Assembly (NCBI GenBank): GCA_963922205.1
Contig: CAWUHX010000096.1
Coordinates: forward strand, 868,001 to 932,000
DNA from: Romanomermis culicivorax
Taxonomy: Eukaryota; Nematoda; Enoplea; Mermithida; Mermithidae
DNA: 64,000 bases
Direction: 5' to 3'
In this document: piece by piece, positions 3,903 to 60,631 of the stretch
Position numbering within the stretch: the first letter of the stretch is position 1
Layout of the letters: every line of letters starts with the position of its first letter
The notes under the pieces: generated by a model
The model's input: only the letters and a program-made list of their open reading frames with translations
Databases searched by the model: none
Told to the model about the DNA's origin: nothing
Program-made: the position numbers and the translations under genes

Positions 3903-4213
3903 TTCTTTGCTGCACCCCCTCATTTTAATGCACCATTTTTTTTTTCAAACGCTCTCTAGAGGGTGCGTCTATTCGACAGCTGCGTTAATTCGAGTGGTGC
4001 GTTTATTCTTCCAAACCTCAATTTGGGGGGTGCGTTAATTAGAGTTAAGGATAAACGCAACCATCATTTTCCAATTTTATTCAAATTCAACGTTGAAGAA
4101 ACAACAAAAATAAATTTTTTTTTGTATGTTAACCTACAACATACCACCCGTAGGATTGATGTGTCACGTGTCGCACGACAGTACATCACCCCTTCGTAAC
4201 AATCGCAATGCTG

Positions 4214-4282
4214 GCTCGGTAGTTCAAATTGAAGAACGCTGCACTATAATCACAGACACCTGGGTTCGAATCCCGGTTGAGC
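4214..4282 (+). repeat. tRNA-like SINE head, copy 3
   Basis: Identical to copy 1 (311-379), carried by the 3903-5620 duplication. Confidence 0.72.
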
Positions 4283-4482
4283 ATTATTTTTCGAACAGTG
4301 TTTGGCCATGGTTACAATGGCAATGCGTTTATCCAATACATGTCATGGCGAGGCTTCGATGGTCCCACATTGGTGGGCTGCAGGAACCTGCATCTTCAAC
4401 AGATGAGGTCGTCCTTCTTTCAAGGGGGAATTTCATGTGTCGCACCGCTGTACGTCACCCCTTCATAACAATCGTAACACTG

Positions 4483-4551
4483 GCTCGGTAGTTCAAACGG
4501 AAGAACCCTACACTATAGTCACAGAGACCCGGGTTCGAATCCTGGTCGAGC
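4483..4551 (+). repeat. tRNA-like SINE head, copy 4
   Basis: Identical to copy 2 (580-648), carried by the duplication. Confidence 0.72.
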
Positions 4552-5256
4552 ATTATTTTTTGAACAGTGTTACGATGGCAACGCGTTTATCCAATACGTG
4601 ACAGGTGTTTTAGCCAATTCAACGGGTCCCGAACCTGGTCATTTTTGTTGAGCCTTGGTCGGGATGGTTACACCTACGCAGACATTGGCCAATGATGGGG
4701 CAGCTCCGGTGCCACCCAGGAAGCCCTTCAACATTGTAACGCAAGTTTCCTATTTCGAATGATTTTTATTTCCAATGAAAACCTCGGATTATTTTTAATG
4801 AATAAAAATCCACGAAATCCTAGTTTTCTAGCTAGAAGTCTTATATGGAAGTATTAATCAAATTCAACCTGCTATACAGTTATTAATTTTAGATTCATTT
4901 GATGATGGAACAGCATATCGAAAGTAAATGAATTTTGTCGAAATCGACCACGTATATTGCTTTTTGGTTTCTAATTTAATTATAATTTAGATAAATAAAG
5001 TTGAATAATTGAATGAAATTTCATTCTTCTGTATTCCTCGCGAGCTTGCATGCATTTGCAAGATGACCAAAATTCCTCTTTTTGTATAACATATGTTGCA
5101 ATCATTCCACTGAAATTCACAATATTGATCATCTTAGATATGGAATGCGGTACCTGCACATCATGCAGGTGCCAATGAACGTCTGATTTTTGCCCGCATG
5201 TATTATTTTGTGTCCACCATGGACCTATGAAAATTTATTATTGCGTCATTTTCGCA

Positions 5257-12266: not shown

Positions 12267-13345
12267 GCTTTTTGGCCCTCAGATTTGGAAGTTGTGACAC
12301 CTGAAGACAAAAGTGAGCATCGAAAGTTATTTTATATGCTTAACATTTTATGCAAATGTTTTAATCTCAGTTGTTAATCATACGACAATTTGCCTACAAC
12401 CGGCGGTTGTCGGCGAATGTCGCGCTCTGCATCGAAGATGGCATTTCAACAAAGCTACGGGCTTTTGCGAGCAATTCCATTACGGAGGTTGCGGAGGAAA
12501 TGACAACAATTTTAAGCAGCTAGCCGAATGTCAACGGGTTTGCGAGGATAATCAACGTGAGGTTTGTATAAATATTTGGCTCCCAGATACTTGAACATAA
12601 AAGTTTTAGCATGCAACAAAATGCCGGAAAAAGTTCCCGGTCATTATAAGAAGACCACTCGACAAAATGATAGAGGTTGTCCAGTGTATAAAGTTACAAC
12701 GGATACCAGTAAGTTAAGCTTGTTCAGTCTTCTTTATATACCATATGTTGAATTTTTCAGAACGAACTTTCATAGTCTATGAAGGCGCAATTCTAACGTT
12801 CAATTGCAATGTCGTAACACGTGAAGAAAAGTCGGTTCATGAAGTTAACCATGAAAGATGCGCTGAATTATGCAAATACAAATTGAGGTAAGAAATAATG
12901 GAGCCTAAGCCTAAGCCTAAGCCTAAGCCTAAGCCTAAGCCTAAGCCTAAGCCTAAGCCTAAGCCTAAGCCTAAGCCTAAGCCTAAGCCTAAGCCTAAGC
13001 CTAAGCCTAAGCCTAAGCCTAAGCCTAAGCCTAAGCCTAAGCCTAAGCCTAAGCCTAAGCCTAAGCCTAAGCCTAAGCCTAAGCCTAAGCCTAAGCCTAA
13101 GCCTAAGCCTTAGCCTAAGCCTAAGCCTAAGCCTAAGCCTAAGCCTAAGCCTAAGCCTAAGCCTATCAATGCTGATCAATCACCCACCAATTTTTTCTTC
13201 CAGTTGCAACACTTTCGTTTGGTCCACAAAACCCGGCCACCCTGTTTGCCGCTTGTTGAACGTGAAAAGTATTCAAGATTTGAGGAAAGATAGCGTTTCC
13301 GCCCTGGAAGGCGTTTGTGGTGTTTTCTTGGACAAAATAAAATGA
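12267..13345 (+). CDS. Secreted Kunitz-PAN domain protein (5' exon not found)
   Basis: Exons are 12267-12312, 12371-12556, 12610-12708, 12761-12887 and 13204-13345; they sum to exactly 200 codons including TGA. The second exon encodes a Kunitz/BPTI domain with all six cysteines (from ICLQP to CQRVC, with the GFCEQFHYGGCGGN core), normally a serine-protease inhibitor fold. The last two exons encode a PAN/apple-like module (CAELCKY, then CNTFVW, CRLLN, GVCGVF). The first listed exon starts in phase 0 after TTTTATAG, so an upstream signal-peptide exon is expected. Introns are 58, 53 and 52 bp, except the last, 316 bp, which is almost all TTAGGC repeat. AATAAA overlaps the stop. A broken paralogue lies at 20458-20940. 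Confidence 0.82.
12902..13166 (-). repeat. Interstitial telomeric array (~44 TTAGGC units) filling the last Kunitz-PAN intron
   Basis: Reads CCTAAG on the plus strand for ~264 bp, with one obvious variant unit near 13108. Without it the intron would be about 52 bp. The matching intron of the pseudogene at 20600-20653 is 54 bp with no telomeric repeat, so the array is an insertion. Confidence 0.95.
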
Positions 13346-18290: not shown

Positions 18291-18433
18291 TGTTTTTTCA
18301 TTTACTGAGCGCTACAGAATACTAGCATTTCAGTGATTATCTACCGTAATGATTATCTACCGTAATGTATATATGTCCATACGTCTAATATTATGAATCA
18401 AACAAATATGGTCATTTTTGATTCCTATGACGA

Positions 18434-18696
18434 AGCCTAAGCCTAAGCCTAAGCCTAAGCCCCTAAGCCTAAGCCTAAGCCCCTAAGCCTATGCCCCTAA
18501 GCTTAAGCCCCTAAGCCTAAGCCCCTAAGCCTAAGCCCAAGCCTAAGCCTAAGCCTAAGCCTAAGCCCAAGCCTAAGCCTAAGCCTAAGCCTAAGCCTAA
18601 GCCTGAGCTTAAGCCTAAGCCTAAGCCTAAGCCTAAGCCTAAGCCTAAGCCTAAGCCTAAGCCTAAGCCTAAGCCTAAGCCTAAGCCTAAGCCTAA
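18434..18696 (-). repeat. Interstitial telomeric array with TTAGGGGC variants
   Basis: ~260 bp of CCTAAG units on the plus strand. The left half contains several longer variants (CCCCTAAG), whereas the right half is homogeneous. It is bracketed by the inverted minisatellite blocks at 18055-18290 and 18750-18970. Confidence 0.95.
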
Positions 18697-44450: not shown

Positions 44451-44496
44451 GTTGAGGCAACCTGTTCCCGCCACTCGGGGCTTCAGTAAAAGTTAG

Positions 44497-44569
44497 GCTC
44501 GGTCTGGGACTTGAACCCAGGACCTTGCGGCTACCGTCCGCACGCTCTAACCAACTGAGCCAACGGAGC
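44497..44569 (-). repeat. tRNA-like unit (anticodon-loop GGT), tandem copy 1
   Basis: On the minus strand it starts GCTCCGTTGGCTCAGTTGGT. Good D, anticodon (TGCGG/CCGCA) and T stems, but the loop lacks the universal U33 and the acceptor has a C-C mismatch. With its ~229-bp surroundings it is repeated at 44726, so a tRNA-derived SINE is the better reading. Confidence 0.65.
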
Positions 44570-44725
44570 AGCGGGAAAGGCGCACTCTTTTTGCAACAAT
44601 TGGTAGTTGAGGTGGCTGCTTTGGCCACTCTCAACATCCCTCCGCCATTGAGTTTGACGGACCGCCAAGGGCCACCAGTGTTAAGGCAACCTTTTCCCGC
44701 CACTCAGGGCTTCAGTAAAAGTTAG

Positions 44726-44798
44726 GCTCGGTCTGGGACTTGAACCCAGAACCTTGCGGCTACCCTCCGCACGCTCTAACCAACTGAGCCAACAGAGC
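44726..44798 (-). repeat. tRNA-like unit (anticodon-loop GGT), tandem copy 2
   Basis: Second copy of 44497-44569, 229 bp downstream, with a few substitutions; also lacks U33. Confidence 0.65.
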
Positions 44799-50514: not shown

Positions 50515-53500
50515 TTATTTGGGCACGTAGGGCGGATAGGCGCCGACAATTCCGGCTGCAGCCGCAGCGGCCGCTTGTTGCCCTGCGGCAAGCAACGCTG
50601 AACGAGAAAATTTCAAATTATAGAAAAAAAATTCAAATCAGTCGCCAAAAAGTCGAAACTCTCACCGGCGTAAGGATCGACGGCAGCCGCAGCTGACGTC
50701 AGCAACGCCGGGTAAGCGTGCGTGTGATGATGCGTATGCAAGTGCCGTTGGACGGGCGGCGATTTGACGTTTGCGGCGTCCTGCGTTTTTTCATTTTTCT
50801 TGGACGGTAGCGGCTGCGGCGGCGCGAAAAACGTCGGCGGTTGAGCGACGAAAATTGCGTCGTAAGGTAATAACGGAGCTAGAAAAGAAAAGACGCTTGC
50901 TGACGTCAAGAAATTCTCTTCGCTCGCGGGCGTCAAGATTTTACCCGCCAAAAACGACGACGTTTCCGGCTGCGGTTCTTTCTTCTTTTTAGGCGGCGTT
51001 TTCATCTCGTGCTGCGGCGGCGGCGGCGACGATAATAAATGACGTTCGAGCGTCGGCGCTTCGTCGGCGTCCGAAACGTCGGAAAAAGCGGGCGACGGCG
51101 GCCGACGTTTTTTGCTAGGTTGCGGCGGCGACGCGCTGATGTTGCTGACGTCAGGCGATACGATTTTGAATAAATTTTCTAAACTAGCGTTTTCGCGATC
51201 GCTCAACGTTTTTTTCCCGTCGACGGAATTTTTTTTTCCGTCGACGATGTTTTCCGGCGTAACGTTTTCCGTCGTGGTCGTCGTTTGAACATCGACGTCG
51301 ACGCGCGTCGAAAGATCGCCGCGCGTCGACGTCGCTGCGTCGCGAAAGTCGGCGACGGCGACGTCCGGGTGAGCGCCGCTTTGATGGTAGATTAAGGCGA
51401 CGGGCGACGTGAATTTTTTGCCGCAACGGGCGACGGTGCAGGGCGTCAACGACGGCGACGACGGTTCGAGGATTGCGGCGCGATTCTGAGGACGAAAAAA
51501 AAACATTTTTTTTAAAACTTTCTTCTAATGTTTCAGAATTTGGTTTTTTTCCCCAAAAAAGTTTTTTTTTGAAAATTTCTTTTGTTTAAATTTTTCTCTA
51601 CTTTCCTCTAAAATTTCAAAAAAAATTTTTTTTGAAGCTTTTCTCGAATGTTTCAAAAATTTTATTTTTTTCAAAAAAAATTTTTTTTTTTGAAGCATTT
51701 CTCGAATGTTTCAAAAATTTGATTTTTTTCAAAAAAAAATTTTTTTCCAAACTTTCCTCTAATATTACAATTTTTTTTAGTCTTTCCTCTAATGTTAAAA
51801 AAATTTTTTTTTGAAATTTTTTCTACTTTCCTCTGAAATTTCAAAAAAAAATTTTTTTGAAACTTTTCTCTAATGTTTCGAAAATTTGATTTAAAAAAAA
51901 TTTTTTTTTCAAACTTTCCTTTAATATTACAAAAAAATTTTTTTGAAACATTCCCCTAATGTTCCAAAAAATGTTTTTTTGAAACTTTCCTGTAATATTT
52001 CAAAAAACAAATTTCTTGAAACTTTCCTCTAATGTTTCGAAAAATTTTTTTTTTGAAACTTTCCTTTAATGTTTCAAATTTTTTTTTTAAATTTCCCTCT
52101 AATTCATGGAAAAACAATTTTGTAGCTTTCCCCTAATGTTTTTTTCTCGAGGAATTTTTAAAAAAATATTTACAAAATTTGCCATCAAATTCACAACTTT
52201 CATAATTTTACGAAAAAAATTAATACGATTTATCAAGAAATTCATAGATTCTACCAAATTTCCTAAAAAATTTACAAATTTTTAACAAATTTAACAAATT
52301 CTTAGAAAGAAATTTACAAAATTAAAAAAATTAAACTTGAAGAAAATTTACAAAATTTCCTAACAAATATTATGAATTTTACAAATTTTTAAATAATTTA
52401 GAAAATCAAAAAAATATTTAAAATTTCGTATAAAAATTTAAAAAATTACAAAAAAAATCACCAAATTTCCAAAGAAATTTACAAATTTTACAAATTTGAA
52501 AAACTTTACACAATAAAAAAATTACAAAATTTCCTGGTAAATTTATGCATTTTAGAAAATTTCGACAGATATTTACAAATTCCTAAAAAAATCACAAAAT
52601 TTCTAAAAATAAATGAGAAAATATGAAGAAAAAATTAACAAAATTTTTTCAAAAAAATTACAAAGTTTCCTAATAAATTTACAAATCTTTAAAAAAATTT
52701 ACGAAATTTAGAACAAAAACTAAATAAAATTTACTAAATTTCCTGAAAAATTTAGAAGGAAAAAACAAGAGTTTGAAAGGAAAAAATTGAAAAAGATTTG
52801 TAAAATTAAAAAATTTTTTACAAATTTTACAAATTCTAAAAAAATTAACAAAATTAAAAAATTTGCAGAATTTCCCATGAAAATTCAGAAAAATTAAAAA
52901 AATTACCAAAAATGTACAAAATTCCTTGAGAAATTTACAAATTTTACAAATTAAAAAAAAATTTTAATTATGTAAGAGAATTTGGAGAAATTTGAAAAAA
53001 AATCGGAAAAACAAAATTTCATAAGAAATTTACAAATTGTATAAATTTTTAAAAAATGTACAAAATTTCCTTAACTTTTAAACTTCGATTATTTCCTTAG
53101 AAATTGACAAAAGTTCCTACGAAATTTACAAAATTTTTTGAGAAATTTACAAATTTTTGAAAAATTTAGAAGATTGTTTCAAAAAAATTTACAAAATTTC
53201 CTATTAAATTTGAAAAAATCTACAAAAAAATGTACGAAATTTCTCAACAAATATGAATTTAACAAATTTTTAAATAATTTACAAAGTTAAAAAATATTTA
53301 AAATATCCTATGAAAATTTATAAATACAAAAAAATTACCAAATTTCAAAAGAAATTTACAAATTTGAAAAACTTTACACAATAAAAAAATTACTGAATTT
53401 TCCCAAGAAACTTATAGGTTTTAGAAAATCTCCATAGAAATTTACAAATTTCTAAAAAATCACAAAATTTTAAAAAAGAAGCGTAAAAATTTGAGAAAAA

Positions 53501-56500
53501 ATTAACAAAATTTTTTGAAAAAATTTACAACGTTTCCTAATAAATTTACAAATCTTCAAAAACTTTACAAAATTTAAACAAAAACTAAATAAAATTTACT
53601 AAATTTCCTGAGAAATTTGAGAAAAATTTGGAAAAAAAACAAAATTTTGAAAAGACGATTGGCAAAATTTAAAAAAACTTTATTTCACAAATTCTAAAAA
53701 AATTTACAAAATTAAAAAAAAATTTGCGAAATTTCTCAAGAAAATTCAGACAAATTAAAAAAATTACCGAAAACGTAGAGAATTCTTCAAGAAATTAAAA
53801 AACTTTACAAATTGCATAAATTTTTAAAAAATGTACAAAATTTCCTTAATAACTTTTAAACTTCGATTAGTTCCTTAGAAATTGACAAAAGTTCCTACGA
53901 AATTTACAAAATTTTTTGAGAAATTTACAAATTTTTGAAAAATTTAGAAGATTGTTGCAAAAAAATTTACAAAATTTCCTATTAAATTTGAAAAAATCTA
54001 CAAAAAAATGTACGAAATTTCTCAACAAATGAATTTAACAAATTTTTAAATAATTTACAAAGTTAAAAAATATTTAAAATATCCTATGAAAATTTATAAA
54101 TACAAAAAATTACCAAATTTCAAAAGAAATTTACAAATTTTACAAATTTGAAAAGCTTTACACAATAAAAAAATTACTGAATTTTCCCAAGAAACTTATA
54201 GGTTTCAGAAAATCTCCATAGAAATTTACAAATTTCTAAAAAATCACAAAATTTTAAAAAAGAAGTGTAAAAATTTGAGAAAAAATTAACAAAATTTTCT
54301 GAAAAAATTTACAACGTTTCCTAATAAATTTACAAATCTTCAAAAACTTTACAAGATTTAAACAAAAACTAAATAAAATTTACTAAATTTCCTGAGAAAT
54401 TTGAGAAAAATTTGGAAAAAAAACAAAATTTTGAAAAGACGATTGGCAAAATTTGAAAAAAAATTAATTTCACAAATTCTAAAAAAATTTACACAATTAA
54501 AAAAAAATTTGCGAAATTTCTCAAGAAAATTCAGTCAAATTAAAAAAATTACCGAAAACGTAGAAAATTCTTCAAGAAATTTAAAAATTTTACAAATAAA
54601 AAAAAATTAAAAAAATTTACAAATTGCAGAATTTTTAAAAAAAATGTACAAAATTTCCTTAATAATTTTTAAACTTCGATTATTTTCTCAGAAATTCACA
54701 CAAGTTTCTACGCAATTTGCGAAATTTCTCGAGAAATCTACAAATTTTAAAAAATTTCGAAAATTGTTTCAAGAAAACTTACAAAATTTTCTATTAAATT
54801 TGAAAAAAATCTACAAAAAATGTACAAATTTTCACAGAAAATTAACAATATTTTAAAAAAAATATTTTAAAATTTAGAATTTCAAAAAAAAATAATTTTT
54901 TTTTAAATTTTCTTTTAAGGTTTAAAATTTGCATAACAATTACCGGACTTTTTTCTACGAAATCGTCATTTTTATTGACGTTGACGGGCGAATCGATCGC
55001 CGGCGATTTGATCGACGGCGCGGCGAAATTTAAATTTAAATGCGAATTATTGTTACGTTTCAATTTACGTCCGCTACCGCCACCGCCGTTGCCGCGGTTG
55101 CTGACGTCATCCTGAGCGTTGGGCGAATCGCAAAATCTTCTTTGATAGATCAAAAATTTTGAATCGATAATTTTGAAAAATTAAAAAAAAAATAAAATAA
55201 AAATTGAAAAAAATTAAATAAAATTCAAAAAATTCAAATTTCCTCGAAAAATCTACAAAATTCGAATTTTACCCTTCAAAAAATTAATTCCACAAAAATC
55301 GAAAAATTTCACAAAATTCAACATTTTTTACAAAATTGAAAAAATCCAACTTTTTTTCCAAGTCGATCAAATTCGAATTTCACACTTCTTTACAAGCTAG
55401 GTTTTGCTTCAAAAATGTAGAACTGGTAATTAAGAAAAGACAAAAAATTTTACAAAATTTTACAAAATTAAAAAAATTTCAAAAAATTCAAAATTTTGAA
55501 TTTTCCACATTAACTTCAAACTTTAGCTTTCGCTTTAAAAATTAAAAACTGAAAATTCTGAAAACACAAATTTTTTTTTAGAAAATTCTAAAATTTTCAC
55601 AAAATTTAAAATTTTTCACAAAATTCAAAAATTTTCACAGAATTCGAAAAATTTCACAAAATTCGAAAATTTTCACAAAATTCAACAATTTTCGCAAAAT
55701 TCAAAAATTTAAATTCAAAAACTAACAAATTTCAAAATTTTGAATTTTTCACATTTTATAGTTTATAGCTTCTTTACACTATAGCTTTTGCTTTGAAAAT
55801 TTGTAACTGATAACTTTGAAAACACAAAAATTTTGACAAAATTAAAAATTTTTTTGCATATTTTCCATATCTCAGATTATTTATACTTCGGTTTTTACTT
55901 CAAAAATTCAAAACTGATAATTCTGGAAATACAAAAATTTTGGAAAAATTCAAAATTTTTCACAAATTTCAAAATTTTTCACGAAATTCAAAATTTTTCA
56001 CAAAATTCAAAAATTTTCAAAAAATTCAAAAATTTTTAATTTTCCATATTTGTCACGTTTCAGCTTCCTTACACTTTAGGTTTTGCTTTGAAAATTCAAA
56101 ACTGCTATATAATTCTGAAAACACAAAATTCAAAAATTTACACAGATTTCGAAAATTTTCACGAAATTCTAAAATATTTACAAAATTTTAAAATTTTCAC
56201 AAAACTCAAAAAAATTTTACAGAATTAAAAAAATTTCACAAAATTCAAAAATTATTAATTTTCCATATTTGCCAAGTTTTAGCTTCTCTACACTTTAGGT
56301 ATAGCTTTGGAAATTCATAACTGATATATATTTCTGAAAATACAAAATTCAAAAATTTTCAAAAAATTCAAAAATTTTTAATTTTCCATATTTGTCATGT
56401 TTTACCTTCCTTACACTTTAAGTTTTGCTTTGGAAATTCAAAACTGCTATATAATTCTGAAAACACAAAATTCAAAAATTTACACAGATTTCGAAAATTT

Positions 56501-59500
56501 TCACGAAATTCTAAAATATTTACAAAATTTTAAAATTTTCACAAAATTCAAAAAAATTTTACAGAATTAAAAAAATTTCACAAAATTCAAAAATTTTGAA
56601 TTTTCCATATTTGCCAAGTTTTAGCTTCTTTACACTTTAGGTATAGCTTTGGAAATTCAAAACTGATATATATTTCTGAAAACACAAAATTCAAAAATTT
56701 TCAAAAATTTCAAAAATTTTGAATTTTCTATATTTGCTATGTTTTAGCTTCTTTACACTATAGGTTTTGGTTTGGAAATTCAAAACTGCTATATAATTCT
56801 GAAAACACAAAATTCATAAATTTACACAGATTTCAAAAATTTAAAAAGATTTCAAAAATGTTCACGAAATTCTAAAATATTTACAAAATTTTAAAATTTT
56901 CACAAAATTCAAAAAAATTTTACAGAATTAAAAAAATTTCACAAAATTCAAAAATTTTTAATTTTCCATATTTGCCATGTTTTAGCTTCTTTTCACTTCA
57001 GGTTTTGGTTTGGAAATTCAAAACTGCTATGTAATTTTGAAAACACAAAATTCAAAAATTTTCACGAAATTCTAAAATATTTACAAAATTTTAAAATTTT
57101 GACCAAATTCAAAAATTTTCACAAAATTCAAAATACCCAATTTTCCATATTTGCCATGCTTCTTTACACTTTAGCTTTTGAATTAAAAATTTGAAACTGA
57201 TAATTTTAAACATGGAAAAATTTTCGCAAAAGAATCTGGATTTTTAAAAACATTTAGAATTAAATTTTTTTCGATTTTAAAATCTTAAAAAATTAAATAA
57301 ATTTTTTTGTGTATAAATTCTTAAAGTTGAAAAAATTGATCATAATTTGAATAATTCGAAATTCTGAAATTTTTCAAAATATGTTCAATATCAAAAACTC
57401 TTGAAAAAATTTTAAAATTCAGTTTGTTTGATTATAATTTTATAGAATATATAAAAATGTGAATTTTAAAAATATCGAAAACTTGCAAATTTTAACAAAA
57501 AAAGGAAAAAAATTCAAATTTTGAAAAATTCAAAAAACTGAAATTAAAAAAAATACCGATTTTAAATTTTTTAAAATTTAAAATTAAAATTTCACCTCGG
57601 TGTCGACCATTCCGATTTCGAACAATCGATCAAAGTTCCGATATACGATTTTCCTCTCCAAGTTACATTAACGACTAAAACGCCTGAAAAAAAAACAAAA
57701 AAAAAATTTTTTTTTGACCTTATCTCTACAGTAATCCGGTCTCGAAACAAAACGAATAAAAAAAATCCCATCGCCTGCTCGTCATTTTTAAAAATTGACA
57801 TTTCCAATTTTTCCCACCGTTTTTCGTTTCGTTCCATACGACGCCCTCCAAAACGATCGACGTGCCCGGTTCGCAGGGTCCCAAAAATTCCGGTTCCACG
57901 ACCGTGGCACCCACCGTACGTACCCAGGTGCCGGCGGCGCGAAATTTCTGGAAGGAAAAAAATTTGACGTCAGCAATATGCAAACTGGGATGGCGTCTGC
58001 AAGGTAGAAGTCAAAATGGCGTCAGCAAGCTGCAACCATCCACAAGCAAATGACGCCATTTGGTTGACGTAGACGGAAAAATGTTTTTATGACGTGCATC
58101 AGATTTTTGATGACGTCAACTTCGTTGCTGACGTCAGCATCAAAAATTCATAAAAAAAGACAAATTAGATAGAGGTGAACAGAACGAAAATCAAAATGAC
58201 GTCAGCAAAATGCAACAACCCGCGAGTAGTTGACGTCATTTAGCTGAAATCAACGTCAAATTATTTGCTGACGTCAACGTCAGTCAATAATGTTGCGGCA
58301 TCAACTTTTTGATGACGTCAATTTTATTGCTGACGTTCAATGTGAAAATGACGTCATAAAAATTTCAACAAGTCAGTAGCATGAAAATTGGTATAACTTG
58401 AGAAAAACGCAACCATCCACGTGTTATAGACGTCGTTTTGCTGACGTCAACGTTGACTTTTTAATTGCAGACGTCAATTTCCGACAACAATTCCTTTAAC
58501 CGACGTCAACGTCAAAATGACGTCAGCAAACGGCGAACTGGATTGACGTTAGCAAATTGAAATTAAACACATGGTCAACGTCATTTTGAAGACGTCAATT
58601 TTTTGCCGACGTCAACGTCAGTCAATAAATCTGCGGCGTCATTTATTGCTGACGTCAACTCCGAATTGCGTCAACAGGGGGCAAATTAAATTGACGTCAG
58701 CAACACGAAAGTTGAAGTGACGTCCGCAAAAAGCAACCACCCACACGTTGTATACATCCTTTTTCTATACTCAACGTTAAATGTCTTGCTGACGTCAAAT
58801 CCTGACATCAGTCTTTTACTGGCGTCAGCGTCAAAATGACGTCAGCAAGGCAACATATATTGACGTCAGCAAAATGGAAATTGCAACAACGTCAGCGAAA
58901 TGCAACCAACCACAAGTAGCTAGCGTAATTTTGCTGACGTCAACATCAATTTTTTATGACCTGAATGTGCCTATCAAGAAATTCGCGACACCAATTTTCG
59001 GAACGACGTCAGCAAATGACGAATTGAGTTGACGTCAGCAACATGAAAATTAAACTGACGTCAGTGCAAAATGCAAACATCCGCAAGTTGTTGACGTCAT
59101 TTTGCTGACGTCAAAATCAATCAATATATTTGCCACATCAATTTTTTCTGACGTCAACCGACAAATATTTGACGTCACATAAAAACAGAATTCTCTCACA
59201 GAGTTTTTTGATAACGCCAATTTCAAAATAACGTCAGCAAAGAGTAATTTGAATTGACGTCAGCAACATGAAAACTGGAATGACGTCAACCGGGAAATAG
59301 TTGACGTCATCTAATTGACGTTACTGACGTCTTTTTCGTTGCTGACCTTAACGTCAAAGTGACGTCATCAGAGAGAAATTTAAATTAACGTCAGCAACAC
59401 GAAAATTGAAGTGACGTCAACCGACAAATATTTGACGTCATTATGCTGACGTTTTATTGACGTCACAAAAACAGAATCCTCTCACAGGGTTTTTTGCTGA

Positions 59501-60631
59501 CGCCAATTTCAAAATAACGTCAGCAAAGAGTATTTTGAATTGACGTCAGCAACATGAAAACTGGAGTGACATCAACCGGGAAACAGTTGACGTCATCTAA
59601 TTGACGTTGCTGACGTCATTTTCGTTGCTGACCTTAACGTCAAAGTGACGTCATCAGGGAGCAATTTAAATTAACGTCAGCAACACGAAAATTGAAGTGA
59701 CGTCAACCGACAAATATTTGACGCCATTATGCTGACGTCACTTTTTCTTTATTGACGTCACAAAAACAGAATCCTCTCATAGGGTTTTTTGCTGACGCCA
59801 ATTTCAAAATAACGTCAGCAAAGAGTGATTTAAATTGACGTCAGCAACATGAAAACTGGAGTGACGTCAACCGGGAAATAGTTGACGTCATCCAATTGAC
59901 GTTACTGACGTCATTTTCGTTGCTGACCTTAACGTCAAAGTGACGTCATCAGAGAGCAATTTAAATTAACGTCAGCAACACGAAAATTGAAGTGACGTCA
60001 ACCGACAAATATTTGACGCCATTATGCTGACGTCACTTTTTCTTTATTGACGTCACAAAAACAGAATCCTCTCACAGAGTTTTTTGCTGACGCCAATTTC
60101 AAAATAACGTCAGCAAAGAGTAATTTGAATTGACGTCAGCAACATGAAAACTGGAGTGACGTCAACCGGGAAATAGTTGACGTCATCTAATTGACGTTAT
60201 TGACGTCATTTTCGTTGCTGACCTTAACGTCAAAGTGACGTCATCAGAGAGCAATTTAAATTGACGTCAGCAACACGAAAATTGAAGTGACGTCAACCGA
60301 CAAATATTTGACGTCATTATGCTGACGTCGTCCTTTGCTTGCTGACGTCACGGATAAAACGCAGAATCACCTCTTTCATCGTGGCGCAATCTTTAAAACT
60401 GCCGGCGATTTTATTATTATTATCGTTTAAATTTCGTAGCGGTAATCTATTATTGTTGATAATGTTAAGTTCATTAATTGGCGTAGTCGTCGTTTTTCTC
60501 TTAATTTTCAAACTTTTCGACGACGACGACGACGAATAATCTTCCTCTTCCGAGTAGAATCTTCTAGAAGAATGTTTTTCTTTTTCGTCCTCCAAATTAG
60601 AATGCGATTCTAATTTCGTTTCTTCGGTCAT
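50515..60631 (-). CDS. Scribbler/ZNF608/ZNF609-like zinc-finger nuclear regulator
   Basis: Minus-strand exons: 60631 to ~60347 (end uncertain), 57947-57818, 57683-57596, 55136-54944, 51485-50666 and 50597-50515. The joined exons 2-4 read [33 protein letters not shown] and EWSTPRFCDSP, the signature block of Drosophila scribbler/brakeless and vertebrate ZNF608/ZNF609, which act as transcriptional co-regulators in neurons and muscle. Exon 5 starts with one C2H2 finger ([10 protein letters not shown]...YHQSGAH), then a low-complexity region rich in Pro, Ser and Lys; exon 6 ends AYPPYVPK. Exon 1 is acidic and Ser-rich. Phases agree for exons 2-6. The exon 1 donor is ambiguous because it abuts a GACGTC repeat. 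Intron 1 is ~2.4 kb of that repeat, and introns 3 and 4 are 2.5 and 3.5 kb of AT-rich tandem repeats. AATAAA overlaps the stop. Confidence 0.87.
51490..52150. repeat. CTTTCCTCTAATGTTTCAAAAA minisatellite, intron 4 of the scribbler-like gene
   Basis: A ~45-60 bp unit centred on TTTCCTCTAATGTTTC with poly-A/T spacers, repeated about ten times. Noncoding. Confidence 0.8.
52150..54900. repeat. AATTTACAAATTT-rich intron with ~0.8 kb tandem triplication
   Basis: Extremely AT-rich. A landmark (AAACTTCGATTA) recurs at 53083, 53861 and 54674, with ~780-810 bp between, and the sequence between is closely alike in the first two units. Small open frames here are artefacts of composition. Confidence 0.8.
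55140..57590. repeat. AT-rich tandem repeat, intron 3 of the scribbler-like gene
   Basis: Repeats of TTTCCATATTTGCCA, GTTTTAGCTTCTTTACACT and GAAATTCAAAACTG, about every 120-240 bp from ~55380 to 57180. No exon seen. Confidence 0.75.
57960..60345. repeat. TGACGTCA array filling intron 1 of the scribbler-like gene
   Basis: About 60 GACGTC cores by hand count in ~2.4 kb, mostly as the palindrome TGACGTCA and often as TTGACGTCAGCAAC or its complement. From ~59186 the sequence is a regular tandem repeat of ~286-296 bp (landmark CAGAATCCTCTCACAG at 59472 and 60062, variants at 59186 and 59766); the left part is irregular. TGACGTCA is the consensus site of CREB/ATF-type bZIP factors. The array touches the last codons of exon 1, which contain the same motif. 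Confidence 0.92.

What the first reader, a model, noticed from the sequence alone, without database searches (positions are those of the whole stretch)
57960..60631. ~60-copy GACGTC/TGACGTCA array in intron 1 of a scribbler/ZNF609 homologue, abutting and echoed in its exons
Intron 1 is made almost wholly of sequence around the CREB/ATF palindrome TGACGTCA, commonly extended to TGACGTCAGCAA. The same core occurs in the coding exons: at the end of exon 1 (RDVSK), in exon 4 (DDVSN, ~55100) and in exon 5 (PDVSN ~51140; LTSAS ~50900; LLTSA ~50692). Such density in the first intron of a conserved transcriptional regulator could be a bZIP-binding enhancer or decoy array, or an autoregulatory element. 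The alternative is a satellite seeded from the exon 1 border. Right-hand units are ~290-bp tandem copies, so part of the count reflects recent amplification.
Basis: partly seen in the sequence, partly recalled or inferred. Interest (0 to 1): 0.85.

Follow-up and report, generated by a model that had tools for sequence, protein, structure and literature searches.

The report
CRE/MARE-motif satellite filling a worm intron
The first long intron of a worm gene related to ZNF609 is filled with a repeat built around one 8- to 12-base palindromic word that looks like a protein-binding site, and the same word turns up four times in the gene's own coding exons, which chance and codon use do not explain.

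Summary
The array is real. TGACGTCA occurs 57 times in the window (0.64 expected): 53 in intron 1 and 4 elsewhere, all 4 in exons of the same gene. Intron 1 holds an old block of six degenerate units (21 cores) and a young block of four ~295-bp copies (32 cores). Two results go beyond repeat growth. First, all four exonic copies read TGACGTCAGC on the coding strand, in two reading frames, and include both TCA serine codons of the gene; 0 of 20,000 synonymous shuffles give four. Second, in the old block cores stay intact between units more often than GC-matched spacer words (46% against 2%; 25% against 2% with cores hidden from the aligner), but with hidden cores the mean mismatch is no lower than in spacers. 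The word is half of the Maf element TGCTGACGTCAGCA. Best reading: a gene-internal cluster of bZIP-type sites, amplified as an intronic satellite. Rivals: a satellite that recombines at its cores, or a genome-wide motif. No genome or relative was available, so binding, function and genome-wide distribution remain untested.

The parts
57948..60370 (-). intron 1 of the ZNF608/609-like gene (acceptor ending TTCCAG at 57948, donor GTGATT from 60370)
   Evidence: open 1575-nt CDS with GT/AG at all five introns; donor chosen by eye and phase
57960..59168 (.). old block of the array: six degenerate units as cut here, 141-197 bp and one of 324; 21 perfect cores
   Evidence: anchored units and alignment, counts
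59169..60351 (.). young block: four tandem copies of 288-306 bp as cut here, 94% matches; 32 perfect cores; the copy looked at falls into two partly similar halves
   Evidence: Tandem Repeats Finder, alignments, counts
58125..58140 (.). TTGCTGACGTCAGCAT: the one intronic core of 53 with GC on both sides; the 14-bp C-MARE TGCTGACGTCAGCA is 58126-58139
   Evidence: sequence, flank listing
   Evidence: donor choice
60371..60631 (-). exon 1 (ATG to GAG), no core inside; no homology found for it, so its coding status is inferred
57818..57947 (-). exon 2, conserved [13 protein letters not shown] segment
57596..57683 (-). exon 3, conserved VLVVNVTW segment
54944..55136 (-). exon 4
55098..55109 (-). 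exonic TGACGTCAGCAA, within DDVSN
50666..51485 (-). exon 5
51142..51153 (-). exonic TGACGTCAGCAA, within PDVSN
50897..50908 (-). exonic TGACGTCAGCAA, within LTSAS in another frame, using the rare codon TCA
50692..50705 (-). exonic TTGCTGACGTCAGC, within LLTSA, using the rare codons CTG and TCA
50515..50597 (-). exon 6, ends the CDS at TAA

Best explanation
Intron 1 and exons 4-5 carry a homotypic cluster of one sequence-specific protein-binding word, TGACGTCA, often extended to TGACGTCAGCAA. The word is a CRE palindrome whose extension makes it half of the CRE-type Maf element. Most copies were multiplied when the intron grew as a satellite in nested steps (an older unit of roughly 170-200 bp, then a ~295-bp unit). 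The inferred mechanism is that a bZIP dimer of Maf, CREB or ATF type binds many sites along the gene body and acts as an intragenic enhancer, hub or sink for this regulator gene; selection then holds enough cores intact while spacers drift, and holds the exonic copies at the expense of normal codon choice. Shown: the array, its two ages, core retention on some measures but not on all, and non-chance exonic copies. Inferred: protein binding, its identity, and any effect on transcription.
For: 57 perfect cores in the window, all within this one gene. Old block: a core in one unit is intact in the aligned unit in 46% of comparisons (n=83) against 2% for GC-matched spacer words (n=853), and 25% (n=75) against 2% (n=851) when cores were masked during alignment; young block 82% (n=93) against 55% (n=336). 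With four aligner settings the old-block intact fraction is 38-46%, and 0 of 2000 circular shifts reach it, also with masked cores. Consensus-based, five alignments: core words intact 46-50%, other words 15-18%. Old block, partner core kept (up to 1 mismatch): GC-bearing flanks conserved at 0.92 and 0.95 per base (n=24, 23) against 0.55 and 0.69 for other flanks (n=52, 27), unmasked and masked. Exons: 4 TGACGTCAGC in 1575 nt; 0 of 20,000 synonymous shuffles and 0 of 20,000 codon permutations reach 4; no one-mismatch copy in the CDS; TCA is 2 of 55 serine codons and CTG 1 of 36 leucine codons, and by the reading frames all three lie in motif copies; flanks match the array no better than random CDS windows for 3 of 4 copies (P 0.60-0.99), the fourth at P=0.04, so what is shared is the short word. 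23 of 53 intronic cores have GC on at least one side, against a GC dinucleotide frequency of 0.039 in the array. MafB binds TGCTGACGTCAGCA (passages of PMC7606469).
Against: With cores masked in the alignment, mean mismatches in cores (2.87) are no lower than in other windows (2.98, shifted 2.93, P=0.42) and slightly above GC-matched spacers (2.67); per base, non-extended cores then score 0.40-0.60, below much of their flanks. The column-based comparison on the old block is weak (0.72 against 0.63, rank 10 of 168 shifts; 0.68 against 0.66 in the first 100 columns). Young block: P=0.05 for mean mismatch and 0.08 for intact fraction; variable columns 3 of 64 in perfect cores, 3 of 40 in one-mismatch cores, 13 of 170 in spacer; flanks conserved alike with or without GC (0.95, 0.94). 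The six old units are few, were cut around an anchor that I chose, and their comparisons are not independent; the aligner may pair cores that are not orthologous. Core positions show no 10.5-bp phasing (resultant 0.07 and 0.12; not tested further). Other long introns of this gene are also full of tandem repeats, so a repeat-filled intron is ordinary here. No binding, accessibility or expression data, no relative and no genome were available.
Confidence: 0.42

Rival explanations
1. Selfish or neutral intronic satellite. The palindromic core is where unequal exchange or template switching starts and ends, so recombination between perfectly matching cores keeps them alike while spacers drift. The exonic copies are the original seeds or short templated insertions from the array.
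For: Two generations of tandem unit and a young 295-bp amplification; 112 tandem-repeat rows in the window (many overlapping), with introns 3 and 4 of the same gene full of other repeats; core conservation not raised in mean mismatch with the masked alignment and only marginal in the young block.
Against: Exonic copies share only the 10-12-bp word with the array, not flanking sequence, for 3 of 4 copies, the fourth being marginal, and sit in two frames. Quasi-palindrome repair, one form of this idea, predicts symmetric double changes: 0 of 28 two-mismatch sites are symmetric (1.3 expected), a weak test.
Confidence: 0.33
2. A dispersed, genome-wide 12-bp motif of this worm with a chromosomal role, comparable in layout to C. 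elegans pairing-centre motifs (clusters of short sites bound by zinc-finger proteins), which happens to be dense in this gene. Binding is again by protein, but the gene is a bystander.
For: The word ignores reading frame and the exon/intron boundary and is clustered over ~10 kb. In C. elegans, ZIM/HIM-8 binding sites lie in clusters throughout the pairing-centre regions (passages of PMC9908027).
Against: No perfect copy in the other 53,883 bases of the window outside the gene, and 16 one-mismatch copies there, although that DNA differs in composition. No binding protein of this kind was looked for or identified.
Confidence: 0.17
3. RNA-level element: the palindromic copies make the intron fold into strong hairpins, or pair with exonic copies, affecting splicing or back-splicing of the gene.
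For: Fold energies of four stretches on both strands lie 3.7 to 10 s.d. below 60 dinucleotide shuffles each; the gene-sense strand has the lower z-score in 3 of 4.
Against: Any array of palindromes folds well; the other strand is also far below its shuffles in all four (z -3.7 to -8.4) and lower in one, which points to DNA palindromes rather than RNA selection.
Confidence: 0.05
4. Base composition or codon bias alone.
For: Exon 5 is CpG-rich (observed/expected 2.14), and GACGTC is expected 2.9 times in the CDS under synonymous shuffling (7 observed, 146 of 20,000 shuffles reach it).
Against: 0 of 20,000 synonymous shuffles and 0 of 20,000 codon permutations give four TGACGTCA; two copies use the gene's rare codons.
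Confidence: 0.02

Closest known systems
CRE-type Maf recognition element (TGCTGACGTCAGCA) and CRE (TGACGTCA)
   Same: The recurrent word is the CRE palindrome with one, once both, of the GC(A) flanks of the MafB site.
   Different: 53 copies in one intron plus 4 in exons, mostly unextended or half-extended; no binding is shown. That such elements usually occur singly or in small groups is recalled.
Heat-shock elements inside Caenorhabditis Helitrons (PMC6927752, abstract seen)
   Different: There the carrier is a dispersed transposon; here a tandem repeat known from one intron only, with exonic copies outside it.
Ca_SR8, a 150-bp satellite in DNA eliminated from C. auriculariae somatic cells (PMC13370393, preprint; abstract, sections 6, 7, 25 and passages seen)
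   Same: A nematode satellite whose FISH probe contains TTTTGACGTCATCAG; the array shares the 12-mer TGACGTCATCAG with it.
   Different: Beyond the core the probe matches this array no better than with shuffled flanks (P=0.71); 20 bases of the probe have no match in the window at up to 3 mismatches. Homology is not supported; the 150-bp unit itself was not available.
C. elegans meiotic pairing-centre motif clusters (PMC9908027 passages)
   Same: Clusters of sites for a sequence-specific binding protein.
   Different: The motif letters were not looked up (the source paper is not held); no evidence here on chromosome position or meiosis.

Membership tests
homotypic cluster of CRE/C-MARE sites | many copies of one bZIP site in a short region, above chance | tested here: met
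   57 observed, 0.64 expected, 0 of 100 shuffles
homotypic cluster of CRE/C-MARE sites | sites held more strongly than their surroundings | tested here: inconclusive
   Met for intact 8-mers in the old block; not met for mean mismatches with cores masked; weak in the column-based test and marginal in the young block
homotypic cluster of CRE/C-MARE sites | bound by a bZIP protein in the organism | not testable with these tools
   no genome held; no ChIP or ATAC data
intronic satellite / minisatellite | head-to-tail tandem units | tested here: met
   period 295, 4.0 copies; older degenerate units
intronic satellite / minisatellite | same repeat at other loci of the genome | not testable with these tools
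   no genome held; no perfect core elsewhere in this window outside the gene; 0 hits of a 21-mer of the unit in viral contigs
Ca_SR8 satellite of C. auriculariae | sequence identity beyond the 8-bp core | tested here: not met
   only the 23-nt probe was available, not the 150-bp unit
ZNF608/ZNF609/scribbler gene | conserved LGPCEPGTS...VVNVTW...CDSP segment | tested here: met

The most novel reading that the evidence does not exclude
A short DNA word is written through a whole gene, in the intron by the dozen and in the coding exons regardless of frame and against codon preference, as a locus-wide address for a sequence-specific protein (a bZIP hub or a pairing-centre-like chromosomal site), with the coding sequence itself bearing part of the code.
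Probability: 0.15. Interest if true: 0.8.

Novelty: new variant of a known kind. Interest (0 to 1): 0.5.

Why it matters
If the cores are bound, this is a natural array of more than 50 CRE/half-MARE sites in one intron of a conserved regulator, a ready test of how satellite growth builds or tunes regulatory DNA. The exonic copies make it sharper: they let one ask whether a DNA-level code constrains codon choice in the same gene. If the cores are not bound, the locus may show a satellite that keeps a palindrome intact by recombination, and a genome-wide count would go far to separate the two.

Tried and rejected
Relatives: exon-joined peptide in viral contigs, 5 pattern matches, none confirmed; a word of the 14-bp repeat and a 21-mer of the unit in viral contigs, 0 each. 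Of these 145 loci the densest held 12 cores in 2.4 kb (L045, L088); the six whose sequence I printed (L045, L088, L107, L006, L049, L058) show short-period repeats; no link to this locus was seen.

Ca_SR8 homology: not supported beyond the core. The other satellite probe of that paper: 0 matches. Phasing of cores: nothing at 10.5 bp. Quasi-palindrome repair: 0 of 28 symmetric double mutants. Composition and codon bias: rejected for the exonic 10-mer. Other array words in the CDS, with the four sites masked: 76, 235, 237 and 1000 of 1000 synonymous shuffles reach the observed number for k=10, 11, 12, 13. Rfam: 8 matches, all tRNA, none in the array. My first core/spacer comparison suggested little difference; later measures show more intact cores but not a lower mean mismatch with masked cores; all are reported. 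Papers: the 12-mer appears in 2 papers of the library, unrelated by their titles (listing only). Listings (satellites, palindromes, CREB, minisatellites) gave PMC13370393 and PMC551538, which I opened, and no other paper that I followed. One search gave PMC9908027; searches gave nothing used.
Full report
What is there. The window is nematode-like: TTAGGC arrays, Srt/Srx chemoreceptors and a GILT gene; that TTAGGC and these receptors mark nematodes is recalled. No genome of the organism is held, so the species is unknown. On the minus strand lies a gene whose six exons (60631-60371, 57947-57818, 57683-57596, 55136-54944, 51485-50666, 50597-50515) join to an open CDS of 1575 nt with GT/AG at all five introns. 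Pfam gives only a sub-threshold C2H2 finger (E=0.11). Exon 1 has no homology found and is inferred.

The array. TGACGTCA occurs 57 times in 64 kb, 0.64 expected: 53 in intron 1 and 4 in exons 4 and 5 of the same gene. The intron holds two generations of repeat: six degenerate units of 141-197 bp, one of 324, as I cut them (57960-59168, 21 cores), and four ~295-bp copies at 94% matches (59169-60351, 32 cores), of which the copy looked at falls into two partly similar halves. Introns 3 and 4 of the gene are also rich in other tandem repeats, so a repeat-filled intron is not special in itself.

The word. Of 53 intronic cores, 12 have GC only on the right, 10 only on the left, 1 on both sides and 30 on neither, while GC makes up 3.9% of dinucleotides in the array. 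TGCTGACGTCAGCA is the MafB site (passages of PMC7606469), so the recurrent TGACGTCAGCAA is a CRE plus half of that element. A CRE-type 7-mer, TGACGTC, is among the top-scoring conserved words upstream of C. elegans and C. briggsae genes in one survey (passages of PMC551538).

Exonic copies. All four read TGACGTCAGC on the coding strand, two in each of two frames, within DVSN or LTSA; three have TGACGTCAGCAA on the coding strand and the fourth has it on the other strand. For TGACGTCAGC, 20,000 synonymous shuffles give a mean of 0.06 and a maximum of 2; 20,000 codon permutations give a mean of 0.003 and a maximum of 1. TCA is 2 of 55 serine codons and CTG 1 of 36 leucine codons of the gene, and by the reading frames all three sit in motif copies. 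There is no one-mismatch copy in the CDS, while the 53,883 bases outside the gene have 16 one-mismatch copies and no perfect one. Outside the motif the flanks do not resemble the array for three copies (P 0.60-0.99), with one at P=0.04. The shared thing is a short word.

Are cores held? In the old block, taking each unit in turn as reference, a core is intact in another unit in 46% of 83 comparisons, against 2% of 853 for spacer words of similar GC. With cores hidden from the aligner it is 25% of 75 against 2% of 851. In the young block it is 82% of 93 against 55% of 336. In the old block none of 2000 circular shifts reach the intact fraction, with four aligner settings (38-46%) and with hidden cores; in the young block 8% do. 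Where the partner core is kept in the old block, GC-bearing flanks are conserved at 0.92-0.95 per base, other flanks at 0.55-0.69; in the young block there is no difference. Against this: with hidden cores the mean mismatch is the same as in spacers (2.87 against 2.93-2.98, P=0.42; 2.67 for GC-matched spacers), and non-extended cores then score 0.40-0.60 per base; the column-based comparison is weak (0.72 against 0.63, rank 10 of 168); the young copies show only a marginal difference. Six units with several cores each give dependent comparisons, and the aligner may pair cores that are not strictly orthologous. I read this as suggestive, not conclusive, evidence that cores are retained.

What it most likely is. 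A satellite-grown homotypic cluster of bZIP-type sites within a regulator gene, with exonic members (0.42). The main rival is a satellite that recombines at its cores, with the exonic copies as seeds (0.33); a genome-wide dispersed motif comes next (0.17). A symmetric-repair mechanism finds no support (0 of 28, 1.3 expected). RNA folding is strong on both strands, as palindromes require, and so says little about RNA function.

Comparison with the known. HSE-bearing Helitrons in Caenorhabditis (PMC6927752, abstract) are the nearest precedent I found for factor sites multiplied by repeats. The C. auriculariae satellite Ca_SR8 carries the same core in its probe (PMC13370393), but similarity to this array stops there. 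The library search for the 12-mer found two papers, unrelated by title. I therefore call it a new variant of a known kind, with function unproven.

Noticed in passing
51486-54943 and 55137-57595: Introns 4 and 3 of the same gene are 18-20% GC and made of repeats of A/T runs with autocorrelation near 10 and 19-21 bp, resembling the periodic An/Tn clusters recalled for C. elegans germline genes; the 10-bp band was 2.98 times background in intron 4 and 1.27 in intron 3, but one of four intergenic controls scored as high (3.11).
   Followed up: partly
2771-2836, 12902-13165, 18433-18696: Interstitial arrays of the nematode telomere repeat TTAGGC: 11, 44 and 42 copies at 100, 99 and 88% matches.
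   Followed up: no
44496-44569 and 44725-44798: Two tRNA-Thr (GGT) genes inside a 229-bp tandem duplication.
   Followed up: no
310-650 and 4213-4553: Pairs of weak tRNA-like matches (30-31 bits) repeated 3,903 bases apart, under reading frames with identical translations (211-588, 4114-4491) and each followed by a chemoreceptor-like frame; possibly tRNA-derived short elements in a duplicated stretch.
   Followed up: no
L058:3710-3843: A Prevotellaceae MAG contig carries a 21-bp tandem repeat with TTGACGTCAGCA; unrelated to this gene as far as seen.
   Followed up: no
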